From the NCBI RefSeq assembly GCF_003984645.1, contig NZ_RWKI01000002.1:186001-250000 (forward strand): 64,000 nt of DNA, read 5' to 3'. Position numbers and translations under genes: made by a program. Positions 28,954 through 37,275 of this stretch are shown in pieces. The notes beneath the pieces were generated by a model, which was not told the origin of the DNA, did not search any database, and was given only the letters and a program-made list of their open reading frames with translations. The stretch comes from Variovorax sp. MHTC-1 (GTDB lineage: Bacteria > Pseudomonadota > Gammaproteobacteria > Burkholderiales > Burkholderiaceae_C). Position 1 is the stretch's first letter, and every line of letters starts with the position of its first letter.

Positions 28954-30756
28954 ATGACGTTGTCATCGCGTCCCAACAACATGCCGTCTCTGCCCGATCC
29001 CGAATTCAGCCTGCAGCGCCGTCGCAAGGTGGTGCTGGTAGTTGATCTCGTCGAATCGGTGAGTCTGATGCAGGCGGACGAACTGAGGGTCATCACACGC
29101 TGGCAAGCCTTTCTTGCGCACGTGAACCAGGTCGTACTGCCCGCCAACGAAGGGCGACTGGTGAAAAGTATGGGTGACGGGTTAATGGTGGAGTTCGAAA
29201 GTGCGCCGCAAGCGGTGGCAGCGGCCTTGGACATGCATGCGTGGATGACCGCAGGGCCTCGCGACATCGCACCGCTCATGCAGTTGCGCGCTGGCCTGCA
29301 CAGCGCGGAAATCTATTCGGACCAACACGACATCTACGGTGCTGGGGTAAACCTTGCGGCACGTATCGCGACGCTGGCGGGTCCAGGCGAGACCGTGGTC
29401 AGCACGGCAATCCGCGACAGTCTTACAGACGGGCTTGACGGCATGCTCGAGGACCTTGGAGAGTGTTACCTCAAACATCTGGAAGCCCCAGTGCGCGCGT
29501 GGCGCGTCGGGGCTGCCGGACGGAATCCCGTCGTCATTGCGAAACGCAACTACGCCGCGCCTTTGCAGCCCACCATTGCGGTCATTCCGTTTACAGCGCG
29601 CAGCCGCGAAGCGGAGCATTTCGCAGTCGGCGAACTGATTGCGGACGGGGTGATTGCACAGCTGTCCCGAATCAGCGAATTCAAGCTTATCTCGCGACTC
29701 TCAAGCGCAGCATTCAGGGATCGCGACTCAACCGTCGACAACGTGGCCGTCAATCTGGGTGCCGACTACGTAGTCAGCGGCAGCTACGTCATGCTGGGAA
29801 CGAAGCTTCAGGTCAATGCAGAGCTTGCAGGCAGTCGGGACCACGTGCTGCTTTGGACCGATCGCATTCATGGCGATATCGCAGATCTGTTGACCGCCCA
29901 AAGCGAACTCGTAAATACGATTTCGAGCAATGTGCAGGCAGCCATCAGCCAGAAGGAAGTGGCGCAAGCACTGACGCGTCCCTTGCCGACTCTTGCAAGT
30001 TGCTCGCTGATGTTCGGCGCGATGTCGCTCACGTACAGCATGGCGCGCGCCGAATTCTTCAGGGCCCAGGAACTCCTGCTGCACTTGATGGAGAGGCACC
30101 GGCGCCATCCATTGCTGCCCGCCTGGCTGGCCAAGTGGCACGTCCTCCAGGTCGAGCAGGGCTGGACCGACGATGCGACGGCTGTGGCACATCGCGCGCT
30201 TGACCACTCGAGCCGTGCACTGGATCTGGATCCTCATTCGTCGCTGGCCCTGGCCATCGACGGATTCGTGCGTTGCAACCTGCACCAGGACTTCGACGCT
30301 GCTGCCGATCGCTACCGAGCCGCACTTCAATGCAATGCCAGCGAACCGCTCGCATGGCTGTTTCTGGGAATGCTGCACGCGTTTCGCGGCGAGGCAGCCC
30401 CTGCGCTTGACGCTGCCGAGCGCGCACAAGCCCTTTCGCCATTGGATCCTGCCAAATACTTCTACGACTCCCTGGCGGCATCCGTGCAGCTCAGCGCGGG
30501 CAACTACGAGCGTTCGATAGAACTTGCACGGCGCTCCCTGCGCGCCAATGGCTCACATCTGTCGACCCATCGCGCAATGACCATCGCGCAGGTCATGGCA
30601 GGACACATGGACGAAGCACGGGCGTCGGCAGCCCGACTCATGCAACTGGATCCACAGCTCACGGTATCGCGCTATCTCGCACGCTCGCCTGGCGTGCGTG
30701 TGGGACCGGGACGGCGCTTTGCCGAAGCGCTGCAGGCTGCGGGCGTTCCGCAATAA
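28954..30756 (+). CDS. class III adenylate/guanylate cyclase with TolB-like and TPR regions
   Basis: With the start at ATG 28954 (28981 is possible; GTG 28858 is unlikely) the protein has about 600 residues. The cyclase domain (about 25-190) keeps the catalytic set: metal Asp31 in VVLVVDLVES, Lys71 and Asp75 in LVKSMGDGLMVEF, and the late Asn/Arg pair in GAGVNLAARI. Lys71 at the base-selecting position favours ATP. Next is a TolB-N/FlgO-like domain (about 205-320; TIAVIPFTARS, GADYVVSGSY), then TPR-like helices to the end. There is no membrane segment. It is the first gene of a cyclase/haloperoxidase/protease operon, 19 bases before the next gene. Base composition is less GC-rich than the neighbours. 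The signal and the product receptor are unknown, but a CRP-like gene lies nearby. Confidence 0.88.
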   Translation: MTLSSRPNNMPSLPDPEFSLQRRRKVVLVVDLVESVSLMQADELRVITRWQAFLAHVNQVVLPANEGRLVKSMGDGLMVEFESAPQAVAAALDMHAWMTAGPRDIAPLMQLRAGLHSAEIYSDQHDIYGAGVNLAARIATLAGPGETVVSTAIRDSLTDGLDGMLEDLGECYLKHLEAPVRAWRVGAAGRNPVVIAKRNYAAPLQPTIAVIPFTARSREAEHFAVGELIADGVIAQLSRISEFKLISRLSSAAFRDRDSTVDNVAVNLGADYVVSGSYVMLGTKLQVNAELAGSRDHVLLWTDRIHGDIADLLTAQSELVNTISSNVQAAISQKEVAQALTRPLPTLASCSLMFGAMSLTYSMARAEFFRAQELLLHLMERHRRHPLLPAWLAKWHVLQVEQGWTDDATAVAHRALDHSSRALDLDPHSSLALAIDGFVRCNLHQDFDAAADRYRAALQCNASEPLAWLFLGMLHAFRGEAAPALDAAERAQALSPLDPAKYFYDSLAASVQLSAGNYERSIELARRSLRANGSHLSTHRAMTIAQVMAGHMDEARASAARLMQLDPQLTVSRYLARSPGVRVGPGRRFAEALQAAGVPQ

Positions 30757-30775
30757 CACTTCCGAGGAGAGCGAC

Positions 30776-31819
30776 ATGGCTGGTTGGGGCGGTTGGGGTG
30801 GTTGGGGTGGTTGGGGTGGTTGGGGTGGCTGGGGTGGCTGGGGCGGTTCGAGTGCCGCTGCGACAGCCTCACCGAGCGCAATAGCAGAGCCGTTGCTCGC
30901 GGAAGCCCTGATGCGCAGCCGGGACGGAACCGTCCTGCAGGATGTGAACGCTTCATTTGCGCCGAAGCACTCTCCTGTCGGAGACACCTCATCGATGAAA
31001 CGCTGGGAGTCAATTCTGCGCTTCAATGCCGCCTTGTTCGACCTGCTTTCCGGCCTGAGTTTCACGCTTGGCCAGCAGAGCGCCACGCTGTCTGTTCAAG
31101 GGCAGCCATTGATAAAGATGGAGAGGCCGGACGACACCTTCTTCGAAAGTCAGTTGAGGCATGTGATCGATTACGCGGAGATTCGAACTGATCGCGCCAG
31201 CGAAATCGTTGTGCAAATGCATCCGCAAGTTCCCTTTTGGAGTGCTGCAGTGCATATCCATCCCGCGCACACGCCAAAAACACTCGAGATGATCGAGCTT
31301 GCCCTGGGGTTCGCGTCCATCATCTGCATGCGCTTCAAGCAGGCGATGGCTGTAGCGCGTCCGATCGATTGGAGTACCGATATCCAGCCCATCATCGCAA
31401 CGCCCAGCCACAGCGCCTACCCCAGCGGTCACGCGACCGAGGCTTTCATGATCGCGTATGCGTTGCCGAAGATTCTGACCAACGATGCAAGCGCGCAGAG
31501 CGCGTATCAGACGCAGTTGGAACGCCAAGCCCATCGCATCGCCGAAAACCGGACCGTGGCCGGGGTTCATTTTCCAGTCGACAGCGCTGCTGGACAAATC
31601 TTGGCGAAGGTGCTTGCCGACTATTTCTTGTTCAGTTGTTTCGGCGACCACGCGGTCAGAGCGCGCAGCTTTGAACCATCGGACAAGGACGCCGACTTTG
31701 ATCCTGTCGCCAACTTGGAAGCGTGCAAGCCTATAAGCACTCTCAAGCTGCCAGCCGCCCAGCCTGAGACGAGTCCACTCTATTGGTTGGCCGAAAGAGC
31801 GCGGAGGGAATTCGAATGA
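30776..31819 (+). CDS. vanadium-haloperoxidase/PAP2-superfamily protein with (GWG)7 N-terminus
   Basis: A 347-residue protein with ATG 30776 behind a strong ribosome site (gaggag). Residues 3-23 are seven perfect Gly-Trp-Gly units. The catalytic residues of the vanadium-haloperoxidase/PAP2 superfamily are present: Lys188 and Arg195-Pro196 (KQAMAVARP), Ser217-Gly-His219 (PSGH), and Arg259 and His265 (NRTVAGVHFPVD). These bind vanadate or phosphate. There is no signal peptide and no membrane segment, so it is a soluble cytoplasmic enzyme, unlike most PAP2 phosphatases. The stop overlaps the protease gene by 4 bases. Halide oxidation, phosphatase action or another use of the site cannot be told apart from sequence. 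Confidence 0.88.
   Translation: MAGWGGWGGWGGWGGWGGWGGWGGSSAAATASPSAIAEPLLAEALMRSRDGTVLQDVNASFAPKHSPVGDTSSMKRWESILRFNAALFDLLSGLSFTLGQQSATLSVQGQPLIKMERPDDTFFESQLRHVIDYAEIRTDRASEIVVQMHPQVPFWSAAVHIHPAHTPKTLEMIELALGFASIICMRFKQAMAVARPIDWSTDIQPIIATPSHSAYPSGHATEAFMIAYALPKILTNDASAQSAYQTQLERQAHRIAENRTVAGVHFPVDSAAGQILAKVLADYFLFSCFGDHAVRARSFEPSDKDADFDPVANLEACKPISTLKLPAAQPETSPLYWLAERARREFE
30782..30844 (+). repeat. Seven 9-base tandem repeats encoding GWG; G-quadruplex candidate
   Basis: Seven copies of a 9-base unit, mostly ggttggggt, start just after the ATG of the haloperoxidase gene and encode Gly-Trp-Gly. Synonymous third-position changes occur only in the first and last two units. The coding strand has closely spaced runs of two and four G, so G-quadruplex formation is likely. 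The unit length keeps the frame, so copy-number change would lengthen or shorten the protein without breaking it. Confidence 0.9.
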
Positions 31820-33696
31820 ACGCCCGCGTGCGACCTGATTTGTACTGGTGGTGGGCCGAGGCTACAGACTATCGTTTTGGAGCCGATGCCCGGGAAGGCA
31901 GGTTGCTGCAATTGCTGATTGAAGGAATCAGCGAGACGTCGGCAGTGGAGCTGGATCAGTGGCTGATGAAAGGCGATTCAGGTTTTGTTCCTGCTCCGTA
32001 CAAACGGGCAAACGCACGTTTCTTCAGCGCATTCGTAGCAAGAAGCAAGATCGCCCTCCTGCCCGGCAGCATCGTCCGGCGTTTCAAGCTCGGGCTGGCG
32101 TTGCGTCCCGATGCCGCCGTCAGGGATCACCCTGCCACCACCCCGGGGAGCCATCATCGCCACAGAACGTGTGCCGGCCACCTTGATACGGCGTCCGCTT
32201 TGAAGCCAAAGGCGGTGCTCGCCATCATCGACGATCTGATCGACGTCGATCATTTCGAGTTCCGAGATCGCTTCACGGGCGGTTCGCGCTTCGAGCTCTT
32301 TTGGGATCAGACAACGAACGCGTCCGCCGGGGGGCGCGCGCCAGACTATGGCTATTCGCTGCTCGGGGATGCCCGCTCGCCCTTGGCTCATCGCCGCGCG
32401 CAGTCTCATGGAACCCATGTAGCCAGCCTCGGCGGGGGGGGCAAAACGCCCGCCTACCGATTGCGTCACAACCAGCCGTTTGCGGGACGCAGCGTTCCCT
32501 CGGCGGACGCAGCATCGGCCGGCCGACTGGCGGCGGTATGCCTGCCACAGGCGACCGTGATGGACACGTCGGGCGGCGCGCTAGCGGTGAATGTCTACGA
32601 CGCGCTGAGCTATCTTCTCGACAACATCGCGTCCGACACAGCAGTGATCGTCAACTTGAGCTTCGGAACGATGGCCGGACCGCACGACGGCACTTCAGTG
32701 CTGGAAGCTGCGATCGACTACCTCATTGCCTCCTCGAACGACGCGGTGCCCAAGCGCAATTTGACAGTCGTACTCCCCGCAGGAAATAGCTTCGATGCGC
32801 AATGTCATGCGCGCTTCACGGTGCCGCCCTCGTCGGCAGATGACCCGTCTCGTGGTGACGATCTGGTCTGGCGCGTGCTGCCCGACGACGGTACGCCCAG
32901 TTTCGTTGAGTTGTGGATGCCGGAAGGCGCGAATGCCAGGATCGAGGTGACTTCTCCCAACGGAGACTTGCAGTTTCATTCGGTATCCGAAGGCCACGTC
33001 GTTTGGCCAGCGGGTGCTACCGGACAGGCAGTGCAAGGCGGAATATTCCATTCCGCCTTGCCCGCAAATGGCGATCACGGCCAACTTTTTCTGATTGGCA
33101 TGGCACCGACTCGGCGCAGCAATCCGGGAGCGAAGAGCGCGATATCAAGCCACGGGGACTGGAAAATCAAGGTGATCAATGACGGCGCCCTGCCCCTCCC
33201 GATACGGGCGTGGATCGAGCGGGATAACGTTTCATTCGGTCAACGCCGACGCGGCAGGCAATCTTATTTCGTCGATAAAGGCGAACTTCGCAAAAGCAGC
33301 AATCCAAAATTTTCATCCCTCCTCCGGGCCGATCGCATCACCGGGTTCGGCACCATGAATGGCATTGCAACGGGCAGGGAGACTACGGTCGTTGGGGGAT
33401 ACCAACTGAGTGACCAAACGCTCGGCGCCTATAGCGGCGCAGGTACCCCGGATCATCACGTTCGCCCGCCGAATGTCCTGAGTCCGGGCGATGAAAGCTC
33501 AGTACTCGTCGGCCTTCCCGGTGCAGGCATTTCGCGCCACGCTACTGTGCGGATGCGCGGCACGAGCGTCGCGGCGCCCTTGGTGGCGCGATGGTTCTTC
33601 AATCGACATTTGAATGGTCGTTCGCCAGGCGTCTTGCGCGACACGAACACCGCTGGATATGACGTGCGTTCGGGCTTCGGCCAGTTCCTGCCTTGA
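31816..33696 (+). CDS. S8 (subtilisin-like) serine peptidase without signal peptide
   Basis: A 626-residue subtilase with the full catalytic set: Asp139 (AVLAIIDDLIDVDH), His198 (QSHGTHVASLG), oxyanion Asn324 (VVLPAGNS) and Ser584 (MRGTSVAAPL). The 135-residue N-terminal extension, with RPDLYWWWAEATDYR at the start, is not a typical I9 propeptide. About 260 residues lie between Asn324 and Ser584, much more than in the minimal subtilisin core, as a beta-rich insert. No signal peptide is seen, so it probably acts inside the cell. ATG 31816 overlaps the haloperoxidase stop and has a ribosome site ggaggga. It is the third gene of the operon; a possible effector, but the target is unknown. Confidence 0.9.
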   Translation: MNARVRPDLYWWWAEATDYRFGADAREGRLLQLLIEGISETSAVELDQWLMKGDSGFVPAPYKRANARFFSAFVARSKIALLPGSIVRRFKLGLALRPDAAVRDHPATTPGSHHRHRTCAGHLDTASALKPKAVLAIIDDLIDVDHFEFRDRFTGGSRFELFWDQTTNASAGGRAPDYGYSLLGDARSPLAHRRAQSHGTHVASLGGGGKTPAYRLRHNQPFAGRSVPSADAASAGRLAAVCLPQATVMDTSGGALAVNVYDALSYLLDNIASDTAVIVNLSFGTMAGPHDGTSVLEAAIDYLIASSNDAVPKRNLTVVLPAGNSFDAQCHARFTVPPSSADDPSRGDDLVWRVLPDDGTPSFVELWMPEGANARIEVTSPNGDLQFHSVSEGHVVWPAGATGQAVQGGIFHSALPANGDHGQLFLIGMAPTRRSNPGAKSAISSHGDWKIKVINDGALPLPIRAWIERDNVSFGQRRRGRQSYFVDKGELRKSSNPKFSSLLRADRITGFGTMNGIATGRETTVVGGYQLSDQTLGAYSGAGTPDHHVRPPNVLSPGDESSVLVGLPGAGISRHATVRMRGTSVAAPLVARWFFNRHLNGRSPGVLRDTNTAGYDVRSGFGQFLP

Positions 33697-33722
33697 AGGC
33701 AAGCTCGCGTGGACTCGCCGAT

Positions 33723-34385
33723 CTACCAGCGAGTCGGCATGGATTTCATCAGGGTAATGTGCTTCGCCTGCCGCAAGATATGGCCGCCCTCAGCAAGATC
33801 CTTCAGCAAGCGGCTGACCATTTCTCTTGAGCATCCGATCTCGCTTGCTATCTGTTGATGTGTGAGTTGCTCGGTGATGAGGCGGGAGCCATCTGGCCGC
33901 ACCTGCGCCCGCTCCTCCAGAAATTGCCGCAGCCTGCTATAGACATCGAGCAACGCCATGCTTCGCGCACTCTCGGTGGCCAGCCTCGCCCGCTTGATCA
34001 AGCGCTTGATCAAGCCTAGTGCGAACTCCGGATCGGCCGCAATGTGGCGCAGCATCGTCTCACGCGTCACGATCGCGCAGATCGTCGGCTCCACCGCCTG
34101 AACGCTTGCCGAGCGTAGACCGCCATCGAGCGACATCTCGCCCACGTATTCCCCCGGCCCATGCAGGCCCAGGGTTACCTCGCGGCCGCGCGCATCGGAC
34201 ACGAAGGCGCGCAGCCGGCCCGAGAGCACGATATAGATGGCGTCGCCCTGGTCACCCTCTTCGATCAGCACGGCGTGGGTGCGATAGCGGCGCTGCACCC
34301 CCAGCGCCGCGAGCTTGCGCAACTCCGGCGGCAGTGCTTCGGCAGGCGAGTCTTCGGCGCGGGAGGCGGCAGGCTTGGGCGGCAT
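33723..34385 (-). CDS. CRP/FNR-family regulator with cyclic-nucleotide pocket residues
   Basis: I choose ATG 34385 (220 residues); an in-frame TTG at 34421 is weaker. The N-terminal cyclic-nucleotide-binding beta roll (about 20-130) carries the phosphate-binding pattern GEMSLDGGLRSASV, with Gly82, Glu83, Arg91, Ser92 and Ala93 in the places used by E. coli CRP to hold cAMP. After a long helix (about 130-160) comes a winged helix-turn-helix (HQQIASEIGCSREMVSRLL). There is no FNR cysteine set. The gene is convergent with the cyclase operon, 26 bases after the protease stop, so it could read the cyclase product; this is inference. Confidence 0.88.
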   Translation of the reverse strand: MPPKPAASRAEDSPAEALPPELRKLAALGVQRRYRTHAVLIEEGDQGDAIYIVLSGRLRAFVSDARGREVTLGLHGPGEYVGEMSLDGGLRSASVQAVEPTICAIVTRETMLRHIAADPEFALGLIKRLIKRARLATESARSMALLDVYSRLRQFLEERAQVRPDGSRLITEQLTHQQIASEIGCSREMVSRLLKDLAEGGHILRQAKHITLMKSMPTRW

Positions 34386-34425
34386 GCGCGGACTATACGG
34401 TCCGCGCGGCGCCCGCCCCAAGTCT

Positions 34426-35097
34426 TCAGTCGTGCCCCGCCAGCCGCAGCGCCGACACGATCTGCGGCATGCGCGACAACTCGCGCACCAGTTCCCGCAC
34501 GCTGCCGCGGCCGGTCTTCTGCCGGACGTTCTTGATGTGGGTGCGCACGGTGGAGACGCGAATGCCTTGCAGGCAGGCGATCTCCTGAGCCCCGTGCCCC
34601 GCGCACAGCTGCGTCAGCACCGCCTGCTCCGCCGGGGTGAGCCGTTTGGAGCGGGCGAACATCTGCACCGTGAGCGTCTCGCAGCTCGCGCGCCGGCTGC
34701 ACATGACGAGCACGGTATCGACCGTCTCGCTCCCGTGCAGCATCGCGAGTGGGATGAAGGCCAGCGAGAGCGGCTCGCCCGCCGGGCCGAGCTCAACGAT
34801 GCTGCGGCAATCGCGCTCGGCGTCCCTGAGCGCCTGGCGGATCTTCGCCTGCCAGACCGGCAGGGCGCCCTCCATCAGGCCATCGACGCGGTGCAGCGCG
34901 CGGCCCGCGGCCAGCTCGCGCCGCGCTGGCCGGTTCGCATGCAGGATGCGCCCGGTCAGGTCGACGAGCACCAGGCCGTGGTCGATCTCGTCGAGCACGC
35001 GCGCCAGCAGGCCGGCCTGCAGGGCATCGGGCGGCGGCGGAACGGTGTTCCGTACTTCCTCACGTTGGAAAATAGGTGACTCGGCGATCGCGTTCAT
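34426..35097 (-). CDS. LuxR-family regulator with PAS-like sensor domain
   Basis: A 223-residue regulator with a PAS-like N-terminal half (VLDEIDHGLVLVDLTGRILH, then a beta-rich stretch to about residue 135) and a C-terminal LuxR helix-turn-helix (about 150-215; LTPAEQAVLTQLCAGHG, GIRVSTVRTHIKNVRQKTG). It has no receiver domain, so it senses a ligand or redox state directly. ATG 35097 follows the ribosome site gaggaaag, which is locked in a 12-base stem (35101-35130). The gene follows the CRP-like gene on the same strand in reverse order, with 40 bases between them, so the two may be co-transcribed. Confidence 0.88.
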   Translation of the reverse strand: MNAIAESPIFQREEVRNTVPPPPDALQAGLLARVLDEIDHGLVLVDLTGRILHANRPARRELAAGRALHRVDGLMEGALPVWQAKIRQALRDAERDCRSIVELGPAGEPLSLAFIPLAMLHGSETVDTVLVMCSRRASCETLTVQMFARSKRLTPAEQAVLTQLCAGHGAQEIACLQGIRVSTVRTHIKNVRQKTGRGSVRELVRELSRMPQIVSALRLAGHD

Positions 35098-35100
35098 GGC

Positions 35101-35130
35101 ACTTTCCTCATCCGTTGTGATGAGAAAAGT
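35101..35130 (-). promoter_or_regulatory. 5' leader hairpin covering the ribosome site of the LuxR-type gene
   Basis: On the minus strand acttttctcatc pairs with gatgaggaaagt over 12 positions (11 Watson-Crick and one U-G) around a 6-base loop acaacg. The 3' arm contains the ribosome site gagga and ends 3 bases before the ATG. It could control translation (for example by temperature or a bound protein) or serve as a DNA operator. Confidence 0.6.
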
Positions 35131-35208
35131 ATCGGAAATCCCGATGGCGCCGGGCTGTGACTATTGCCGCCGGATTTGTGACTTATTCACCTCCGCCGAT
35201 CGACTGCC

Positions 35209-36114
35209 TCAACCTGTCAGCCGCTGCAGCGCCTCGCGGTACTTGGCCGCCGTCTTCTCGATCACCTCGGCCGGCAGGCGCGGCGCCGGCGGCGTCTTGT
35301 CCCAGGGCTTGCCGTTGATCTTGGTGGCCTCCAGCCAGTCGCGCACGAACTGCTTGTCGTAGCTCGGCGGATTCGTGCCGGCGGCGAACGCGGCCTCGTA
35401 GCCCTCGACCGGCCAGTAGCGCGAACTGTCGGGCGTCAGCACCTCGTCCATCAGCACCAGCGTGCCGGCCTCGTCGAGGCCGAACTCGAACTTGGTGTCG
35501 GCAATGATCATTCCCTTCGCCAGCGCGATGGCCGCGGCCGCCTCGTAGATTGCGATGCTGGTCTCGCGGATCTGCTGGGCGAGTGCCGGCCCCACGGCCT
35601 CCACCACCTTGTCGTAGCTGATGTTCTCGTCGTGCGCGCCCGCCGCCGCCTTGGCCGCGGGCGTGAAGATCGGCCGCGGCAGCTTGCTCGCGTTGCGCAG
35701 GCCCTCGGGCAGCGGCACGCCGCAGACGGCACGGTTCTCCTGGTATTCCTTCCAGCCGCTGCCGGCGAGGTAGCCGCGAACCACGGCCTCGACCGGGATC
35801 GGCTTGAGCCGCTTGACAAGCATGGAGCGGTCCCTGACCTGGGGCACTTCTTCAGGGGTCACCGCGCTTTCGGGCGCATCGCCGGTCAGGTGGTTGGGGC
35901 ACAGGTGTCCGAGCCGGTCGAACCACCAGAGCGCCATTTGCGTGAGGATCACGCCCTTGCCCGGAATCGGCTCGCCCATGATCACGTCGAAGGCCGAGAG
36001 GCGGTCGCTCGCGACCATCAGGATGCGGTCGTCGCCGACCGCATAGTTGTCGCGCACCTTGCCGCGCGCGAGCAGGGGGAGACTCTGGATGGAGGAGGTG
36101 TGGACGGTGGTCAT
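35209..36114 (-). CDS. purC: phosphoribosylaminoimidazole-succinocarboxamide synthase
   Basis: PurC joins CAIR and aspartate to SAICAR in purine synthesis. I take ATG 36114 (301 residues); a longer frame adds an unconserved basic leader. The family stretches are [40 protein letters not shown] and [17 protein letters not shown], then [14 protein letters not shown] near the C-terminus with the substrate-binding Asp and Lys. The length is that of the long yeast-like type common in betaproteobacteria. It is preceded by fba with a clear terminator between, so it has its own promoter. Confidence 0.97.
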
Positions 36115-36164
36115 GGCGGGGCGGCTGTGTCGGGATGGACGAGAACGATGGAGATTGTGCGCGC

Positions 36165-36190
36165 AGAAAAAAGCCACCGCGAGGGTGGCT
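36165..36190 (-). terminator. rho-independent terminator downstream of fba
   Basis: On the minus strand agccacc-ctcgc-ggtggct forms a perfect 7-base stem followed by a run of Ts (the A-run at 36167-36172 on the plus strand). It lies 20-45 bases after the fba stop and ends that transcript before purC. Confidence 0.9.
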
Positions 36191-36210
36191 TGTGCGCAGC
36201 GGCGAAAGGA

Positions 36211-37275
36211 TCAGACCACTTCTTGCGCGAGCTCGCCCTTGGCGTACTTGGCGGCGACGACCTGCAGCGTGTCGCCCTTGAACTTGGCACCCTGGCCCTC
36301 GCAGCCGAACTCGATGTAGCGCTGCTTGCAGATCTGCTTGGCGGCCTCGCGCGCGGGCTTGAGCCATTCGCGGGCGTCGAACTTCTCCGGGTTTTCGGCC
36401 AGGAACTTGCGCACGGCGCCGGTCATCGCGAGGCGGATGTCGGTGTCGATGTTGATCTTGCGCACGCCGTACTTGATGGCCTCCTGGATCTCCTCGACCG
36501 GCACGCCGTAGGTTTCCTTCATGTTGCCGCCGTACTGGCGGATGATGGCCAGCAGATCCTGCGGCACGGAGGACGAGCCGTGCATCACCAGGTGGGTGTT
36601 GGGGATGCGGCGGTGGATCTCCTTGATGCGGTCGATCGCAAGGATGTCGCCGGTGGGCTTGCGGGTGAACTTGTAGGCGCCGTGGCTGGTGCCGATGGCA
36701 ATGGCCAGCGCGTCGAGCTGGGTCTTCTTGACGAAGTCCGCTGCCTGCTCGGGGTCGGTCAGCAGCTGCTCGCGCGTCATGGTCGCGTCGGTGCCGTGGC
36801 CGTCTTCCTTGTCGCCCTTCATGGTCTCGAGCGAACCCAGGCAGCCCAGTTCGCCTTCCACCGTCACGCCGACCTTGTGGGCCATGTCCACGACCTTGCG
36901 CGTGACGTCGACGTTGTAGTCGTAGCTGGCGATGGTCTTGCCATCGGCTTCCAGCGAGCCGTCCATCATCACCGAGGAGAAGCCCAGGTTGATTGCACCC
37001 TGGCACACGTCGGGGCTCTGGCCGTGGTCCTGGTGCATCACCAGCGGAACGCTCGGGTAGGCCTCGATGGCCGCCAGGATCAGGTGCTTGATGAAAGGCT
37101 CGCCCGCGTACTTGCGTGCACCGGCGCTGGCCTGCAGGATGACCGGCGCGCCGGTTTCCTTGGCCGCTTCCATCACGGCCTGCACCTGTTCCAGGTTGTT
37201 GACGTTGAATGCCGGGATGCCGTAGCCGTTGGCTGCGGCGTGGTCGAGCAGTTCGCGCATCGAGACAAGTGCCAT
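36211..37275 (-). CDS. fba: class II fructose-bisphosphate aldolase
   Basis: The zinc aldolase cleaves or forms fructose 1,6-bisphosphate in glycolysis and gluconeogenesis. The 354-residue protein is of the type used by Comamonadaceae and by CbbA of the Calvin cycle. Zinc ligands are the two His in [14 protein letters not shown], the later His in [12 protein letters not shown] and the His in [11 protein letters not shown]; the loop [14 protein letters not shown] follows the family. It has its own terminator. The adjacent pyk and pgk genes on the same strand are part of the same metabolic block but are separated by repeats. Confidence 0.97.

What the first reader, a model, noticed from the sequence alone, without database searches (positions are those of the whole stretch)
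35101..35130. Hairpin that hides the ribosome site of a LuxR-type regulator
A 12-base stem with one U-G pair and a 6-base loop covers the gaggaaag ribosome site and ends 3 bases before the start codon. This geometry suits a thermometer, a protein-controlled switch or attenuation by translation. The gene lies next to the CRP-like regulator and the cyclase cassette, so translational control could link them.
Basis: partly seen in the sequence, partly recalled or inferred. Interest (0 to 1): 0.6.

Follow-up and report, generated by a model that had tools for sequence, protein, structure and literature searches.

The report
Start-site-gated hairpin guarding a regulator's ribosome site
A real hairpin hides the ribosome site of a PAS-LuxR regulator gene in Variovorax, but its blocking arm overlaps the gene's own predicted promoter, so it probably silences only RNA running in from the neighbouring purC gene rather than acting as a thermometer.

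Summary
The hairpin is real (minus strand 35130..35101: 12 pairs, one U-G, 6-base loop, 3 bases before ATG 35097) and covers the ribosome site. Relatives in Variovorax and loci from 27 other genera share a two-part operator (GTGAATnnnTCAC, second TCAC) and a -10-like hexamer 57-59 bases after GTGAAT. This puts the transcription start at 35121, inside the 5' arm: only 3 of its 12 bases would be in the gene's own mRNA. Pairing of the start-site region with the ribosome site is kept, with paired changes, in purC-linked relatives and, less firmly, in some other genera. The promoter sits behind a same-strand gene in 66 of 75 loci, rarely with a terminator-like site between (the window has one weak one). 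Best reading: a fold-back insulator. RNA running in from purC hides the ribosome site; RNA from the regulator's own activator-dependent promoter lacks the blocking arm and is translated, as published for T4 genes e and I-TevI. A thermometer fails in silico (still closed at 60 C). Start site and read-through are inferred, not measured; column-by-column covariation was negative.

The parts
35119..35130 (-). 5' arm of the hairpin (ACTTTTCTCATC); overlaps the end of the -10 element and the predicted start of transcription
   Evidence: coordinates of -10 and +1
35113..35118 (-). loop ACAACG
35101..35112 (-). 3' arm GATGAGGAAAGT containing the ribosome site GAGGAA
35128..35133 (-). -10-like hexamer GATACT (family pattern T/C/G-A-NN-CT)
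   Evidence: 57-59 nt after GTGAAT in 55 of 56 motif-bearing loci, searched from 53 on
35121..35121 (-). predicted transcription start (A of a CA, 7 nt after the -10); own 5' leader would be 24 nt
   Evidence: for the place; CA with its A exactly 7 nt after the -10 in 26 of 34 leaders, 6 to 9 nt in 32 of 34; inferred, not mapped
35178..35190 (-). first operator element GTGAATAAGTCAC, centred near -63
   Evidence: TGTGAATAAGTCACAAA with up to 3 mismatches matches here (1 mismatch) and at one other place (3 mismatches) in the genome
35157..35168 (-). second operator element GGCAATAGTCAC, centred near -41.5, its TCAC 21 bp from that of the first
34426..35097 (-). PAS-LuxR one-component regulator gene (223 aa)
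   Evidence: Pfam GerE; AlphaFold model with PAS-like N-domain and HTH; best PDB matches VqmA
33723..34421 (-). CRP/FNR-like regulator gene, 4 nt downstream as the ORF finder places it, probably same operon
   Evidence: Pfam cNMP_binding and HTH_Crp_2; a CRP match lies in 60 of 68 loci held around relatives
35209..36177 (-). purC (SAICAR synthetase), upstream same-strand gene and presumed source of read-through RNA; its stop codon is 18 nt before the operator (start as listed by the ORF finder)
   Evidence: Pfam SAICAR_synt
35131..35145 (-). weak terminator-like stem (6 pairs, 3 of them G-C, then ACTTTTCTCA) in the promoter spacer; might stop part of the read-through; not seen as such in most relatives
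   Evidence: 1 found, 0.6 expected in shuffles; a site in this spacer in 4 of 34 leaders and 0 of 40 other loci

Best explanation
The hairpin is a start-site-gated translation lock (fold-back insulator). The luxR-crp operon has its own activator-dependent promoter wedged between purC and luxR. Its -10 element and start site overlap the 5' arm, so the operon's own mRNA begins near the loop (about 35121), lacks the anti-ribosome-site strand and can be translated. RNA polymerase running in from purC copies the whole inverted repeat; that RNA folds at about -15 kcal/mol, hides GAGGAA, and luxR (and, if coupled, crp) is not made from it. Shown here by computation: hairpin, conserved operator and -10 spacing, position-specific kept pairing, a same-strand neighbour close upstream. 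Inferred: actual start site, read-through from purC, the effect on translation, and the activator's identity (perhaps LuxR or the CRP-like protein itself).
For: (1) Promoter: GTGAATnnnTCAC, a second TCAC and a -10-like hexamer at 57-59 nt in 55 of 56 motif-bearing loci and, with laxer motif and spacing set to 56-60, in 78 of 120 loci; a CA with its A 6 to 9 nt after the -10 in 32 of 34 leaders. (2) Pairing kept with changed sequence: a one-base insertion in both arms (L152, 15 pairs, -24.4 kcal/mol, against its near relative L004 with a bulge, -17.2) and a re-paired inner stem (L150 against L149); other arm sequences in L014 and in L065, L073, L141. (3) Own 5' block with own 3' block folds better than permuted blocks among purC-linked and near subclades: z -3.6 to -6.1 cut after -1, -2.5 to -4.9 cut after +4. 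(4) Over 36 clusters the excess of own over permuted pairing peaks at -9..+2, z -3.9, family-wise p 0.0055 over 84 offsets; it is z -0.3 when the 3' window moves 16 nt towards the gene. (5) Ribosome-site exposure: window 0.00 in long RNA against 0.39 in own RNA; means of 34 leaders 0.12 against 0.36. (6) A same-strand coding-like ORF ends within 130 nt upstream of the operator in 66 of 75 loci; a terminator-like site upstream of the operator in 2 of 74. (7) Same logic published for T4 gene e and I-TevI (passages).
Against: Column-wise covariation on 29 leaders does not exceed shuffles: 74.7% of cells paired against 75.2%, one pair changed on both sides against 1.7. Without the Variovorax cluster the cross-genus signal is z -3.0, p 0.003 at that offset but family-wise p 0.089; with 10- and 8-base windows it is z -2.3 and -0.9 there (family-wise p 0.41 and 0.53 at their best offsets), and there is a shoulder of z about -2.4 at -22..-11. 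Of 34 non-Variovorax clusters 16 show no excess. Shuffling just the six bases before +1 of the window gave as good a gain in 23% of 200 cases, because they are pyrimidine-rich. The stem is weak in L155, L159 and L012 and there is little or none in L063, L067, L068, L071 and L078. In 5 of 34 leaders own RNA is computed to be no more open than long RNA, and only 4 of 34 exceed 0.5. The window itself has a weak terminator-like site before the hairpin, which could limit read-through. The strict sigma-70 scan found no promoter. No measured start site or RNA. Shared ancestry is only partly removed by the subclade permutation.
Confidence: 0.58

Rival explanations
1. The hairpin is in the gene's own mRNA (start site upstream of 35131, or just after the -10) and is a cis-regulated ribosome-site lock, opened by a protein, small RNA or other factor.
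For: If RNA starts at -6 the lock already forms in the window: exposure 0.01, and 0.18 as mean of 34 leaders. No start site has been mapped. Kept pairing fits equally well.
Against: The -10-like hexamer at fixed spacing from the operator and the CA about 7 nt later point to a start inside the arm; part of the stem (35130..35128) lies inside the -10 hexamer itself, which RNA from this promoter cannot contain.
Confidence: 0.21
2. Chance plus composition: a pyrimidine-rich start region happens to complement a purine-rich ribosome site, with no function.
For: Column-wise covariation negative; discriminator shuffle 23%; several relatives lack a good stem; 16 of 34 other clusters show no excess; other 12-pair stems occur in the window.
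Against: Own pairing beats permuted pairing, which controls for composition; paired insertion and re-paired inner stem.
Confidence: 0.16
3. RNA thermometer opened by warmth.
For: Ribosome site in a stem with one U-G pair.
Against: Computed exposure 0.00 at 10-50 C and 0.04 at 70 C; no Rfam match; own RNA probably lacks the arm.
Confidence: 0.02
4. DNA operator: the inverted repeat over -10 to the ribosome site binds a repressor.
For: It is a dyad over the promoter.
Against: Arm sequence, loop length (4 in L152, 10 in L150, over 20 in L073) and register vary between relatives while pairing persists; no second copy in the genome with up to 3 mismatches; the conserved motif lies upstream instead.
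Confidence: 0.03

Closest known systems
Phage T4 gene e (lysozyme) and homing endonuclease I-TevI; similar arrangements named for I-TevII, I-TevIII, segB and Aeh1 mobE
   Same: A hairpin hides the ribosome site in RNA from upstream promoters; the gene's own late promoter is placed so that its RNA lacks the 5' strand and is translated (PMC3014915 and PMC2988022, passages).
   Different: Those are phage genes with a phage late sigma factor; this is a bacterial chromosomal regulator operon behind purC with an activator-type operator, and the start site is not mapped.
IS10 and IS50 transposase protection from outside promoters (fold-back inhibition)
   Same: Incoming transcripts fold and hide the ribosome site, own transcripts start inside the repeat (recalled; not found in the passages I saw).
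   Different: There the repeat is the end of a mobile element; here no second copy was found in the genome.
Ribosome-site RNA thermometers (ROSE, FourU; recalled)
   Same: Ribosome site paired near the start codon.
   Different: Too stable to melt in computation, no Rfam match, own RNA probably lacks one arm.
VqmA-type PAS-LuxR regulators
   Same: Protein architecture: PAS-like domain plus LuxR HTH.
   Different: About 20% identity and whole-chain TM-scores of 0.30-0.38; ligand unknown; tells nothing about the hairpin.

Membership tests
T4-type start-site-gated ribosome-site hairpin | Stem covers the ribosome site in long RNA | tested here: met
   (computed folding)
T4-type start-site-gated ribosome-site hairpin | Own promoter located so that own RNA lacks the 5' strand | tested here: inconclusive
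   Predicted from conserved operator and -10 spacing; no mapped start
T4-type start-site-gated ribosome-site hairpin | Upstream transcription reaches the gene | tested here: inconclusive
   Same-strand ORF close upstream in 66 of 75 loci; terminator-like sites upstream of the operator in 2 of 74 and in the promoter spacer in 4 of 34 plus 0 of 40, the window being one of the 4; RNA not seen
T4-type start-site-gated ribosome-site hairpin | Long RNA poorly translated, short RNA well translated | not testable with these tools
   needs bench work
RNA thermometer | Ribosome site exposed within the growth temperature range | tested here: not met
   (computed)
RNA thermometer | Match to a described thermometer family | tested here: not met
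   Rfam, window 33000..37000, no match up to E 1
DNA operator dyad | Conserved sequence and spacing of half-sites | tested here: not met
   arms and loops vary while pairing persists
Intrinsic terminator/attenuator | Stem followed by a T run | tested here: not met
   this stem is followed by GCCATG and the scan did not list it; the scan lists another, weak stem just upstream at 35145..35131

The most novel reading that the evidence does not exclude
A family-wide way to insulate a regulator operon from its neighbours: an activator-dependent promoter whose -10/start region is itself the anti-ribosome-site strand, kept by paired change across several genera of the family as the operon sits behind different genes, so that only self-started mRNA is translated.
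Probability: 0.33. Interest if true: 0.7.

Novelty: new variant of a known kind. Interest (0 to 1): 0.45.

Why it matters
If true, the choice of start site, not temperature or a ligand, decides whether a bacterial chromosomal regulator is translated. This logic is described for T4 phage genes; here it would serve as insulation in a crowded genome where a promoter sits a few bases behind another gene, and it would warn that ribosome-site hairpins found from genome sequence should not be called thermometers before the start site is known.

Tried and rejected
Rfam, further copies of the hairpin and of the operator gave nothing more. Column-wise covariation on alignment A1 was negative; MAFFT misplaces some rows with insertions there, but I report it as it stands. 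Whether hairpin strength goes with lack of a terminator could not be tested: only 2 of 74 loci had a terminator-like site upstream of the operator.

Paper searches: searches listed nothing; some searches listed 4, 2, 2, 1 and 5 papers; two searches listed 10 of 478 and 8 of 74, so those two lists are capped. By title and start of abstract none concerned this operon or this use in a chromosomal regulator. I saw passages of PMC3014915 and PMC2988022 (used), and of PMC4265352, PMC5006887 and PMC12802891 (not bearing on it); the other listed papers I saw only in the lists.

Rows dropped: 8 repeat records of the same genomes (in the counts from then on), 11 of 55 leaders longer than 36 nt were left out of the permutation; 42 of 120 loci without motif, -10 or start; L099 for its weak ribosome site; identical leaders merged, 57 loci to 34. 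One search stopped with an error and was redone. Start codons were misplaced for L015, L016, L035, L054, L055, L057-L059 and L063; later calls mended this, with GTG or ATG 3 nt apart chosen differently between calls for L015, L016, L054 and L055. The cyclase link could not be tested (flanks too short).

Full report
What is there. On the minus strand purC (stop at 35209) is followed after 111 bases by a 223-residue LuxR-type gene (35097..34426) and, 4 bases later as the ORF finder places it, a CRP/FNR-like gene (34421..33723). The hairpin at 35130..35101 is as described: 12 pairs with one U-G, loop ACAACG, ending 3 bases before ATG, with GAGGAA in the 3' arm. It folds better than all 200 shuffles as a 33-mer, less strikingly in longer context, and with up to 3 mismatches it is single in the genome. 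Stems of that length also occur at six other places in the window. The window's genome is a Variovorax by inference: its nearest named relatives are (20 of 24 named loci bear that name), and several same-genus handles have contigs of the same length as named Variovorax records.

The protein. Pfam gives GerE for the C-terminus. The predicted structure (mean pLDDT 75.9, pTM 0.55) has a PAS-like N-terminal domain and a LuxR HTH; the best PDB matches are VqmA PAS-LuxR chains, at whole-chain TM-scores of 0.30-0.38. So this is probably a one-component sensor-regulator of unknown ligand.

Relatives. The gene was found in 35 of 101 genomes of the genus at E <= 1e-40 and in 132 of 399 genomes drawn from the family at E <= 1e-20, in 61 of 141 genera. 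A CRP-like match lies in 60 of 68 loci held around relatives and purC in the Variovorax group, L056 (Xenophilus) and L057-L059 (genus handle g96), not in L017 or L060-L085.

A conserved promoter runs through the hairpin. Upstream of the gene lies GTGAATnnnTCAC followed by a second TCAC, and then a hexamer TANNCT (CANNCT or GANNCT in Variovorax) 57 to 59 bases after the G of GTGAAT in 55 of 56 motif-bearing loci. In a larger set with a laxer motif and the spacing set to 56-60, 78 of 120 loci fit; by their handles these come from Variovorax and 27 other genera (hand count). A second element centred near -41.5 and a -10 with its conserved A and T is what an activator-dependent sigma-70 promoter looks like (general knowledge). 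In the window the -10 is GATACT at 35133..35128 and +1 falls on the A at 35121. Of 34 distinct leaders, 26 have a CA whose A is exactly 7 bases after the -10 and 32 have one 6 to 9 bases after it. The 5' arm of the hairpin (35130..35119) thus overlaps the -10 and the start: 9 of its 12 bases would not be in the gene's own mRNA. The strict sigma-70 scan found no promoter here, as one would expect if the -35 is replaced by an activator.

The pairing itself is kept. Leaders of relatives differ in the arms, yet most of the purC-linked ones can pair the region around the start site with the ribosome site. Two cases are telling: L004 has an extra G in the 5' arm (a bulge, -17.2 kcal/mol), while its near relative L152 has in addition an extra C in the 3' arm, giving 15 unbroken pairs and -24.4 kcal/mol; L149 has a changed inner 5' arm without partner, while its near relative L150 has the matching change in the 3' arm. 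When 5' and 3' blocks are permuted among subclades, own combinations are better by z -3.6 to -6.1 with the cut after -1 and -2.5 to -4.9 with the cut after +4; a duplex version on 22 purC-linked subclades gives z -3.0 and -4.4 in two draws. Over 36 sequence clusters the excess of own over permuted pairing peaks at -9..+2 (z -3.9, family-wise p 0.0055 over 84 offsets), with a shoulder of about -2.4 at -22..-11; without the Variovorax cluster it is z -3.0, p 0.003 at that offset, family-wise p 0.089, and weaker with shorter windows. Moving the 3' window by 6 bases keeps it (z -3.8), by 12 weakens it (z -1.6), by 16, 20, 24 and 30 leaves z -0.3, -1.2, -0.8 and 0.0. Of 34 clusters outside Variovorax, 6 have an excess above 4 kcal/mol and 16 none.

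Against this, simple column-wise covariation on 29 leaders is no better than shuffles, shuffling the window's own six bases before +1 does as well in 23% of 200 cases, and some relatives have weak stems or hardly any. I take the pairing as well supported in the purC-linked group and suggestive beyond it.

Why an RNA that the gene's own promoter cannot make? Because another RNA can. In 66 of 75 loci a same-strand coding-like ORF ends within 130 bases upstream of the operator, most of them 9 to 46 bases before it (a heuristic). A terminator-like site upstream of the operator was found in 2 of 74 loci. In the promoter spacer such a site occurs in 4 of 34 leaders and 0 of 40 other loci; the window is one of the four, with a weak stem of 6 pairs at 35145..35131 (0.6 expected by chance), so read-through here may be reduced. 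Rho-dependent ends are not seen by such scans. RNA running in from purC would contain the whole repeat; the computed chance that the ribosome site is free is 0.00 in such RNA and 0.39 in RNA started at 35121 for the window, and 0.12 against 0.36 as means over 34 leaders; in 5 of the 34 own RNA is no more open. This is the logic of T4 gene e and I-TevI: long transcripts are locked, transcripts from the promoter inside the repeat are not (PMC3014915, PMC2988022; passages). IS10 and IS50 are said to do the same (recalled).

Other readings. The stem stays closed up to 60 C in computation, which speaks against a thermometer. Varying arms and loops speak against a DNA operator. No T run follows the stem, so it is not an intrinsic terminator. 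The serious rival is that transcription starts further upstream, so that the lock is in the gene's own mRNA; only a mapped 5' end can settle this.

Standing. Shown by computation: hairpin, conserved operator and -10 spacing, position-specific pairing, same-strand neighbour. Inferred: start site, read-through, translation effect, activator. My searches (open-licence papers only, two of the lists capped) listed no paper on this operon or on this use in a chromosomal regulator.

Noticed in passing
window 35157-35190 (-): The operator GTGAATnnnTCAC plus second TCAC is conserved before this gene in loci of Variovorax and 27 other genera, but TGTGAATAAGTCACAAA with up to 3 mismatches occurs at only 2 places in the genome: it looks operon-specific, perhaps autoregulatory.
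   Followed up: partly
L064, L077: Two tandem copies of the LuxR-type gene lie at these loci.
   Followed up: no
window 31783-33696 (+); L011, L033, L060, L061, L062, L148: A peptidase-like ORF (S8-type label is my reading, not from a family search) lies convergent to the operon here and has relatives beside the operon in 6 of 56 other loci.
   Followed up: partly
window 30698-31819 (+): ORF with a long Trp-Gly-Gly repeat near its N-terminus.
   Followed up: no
genus-wide: 66 of 101 genomes of the genus had no match at E <= 1e-40, so the operon is patchy within the genus.
   Followed up: no
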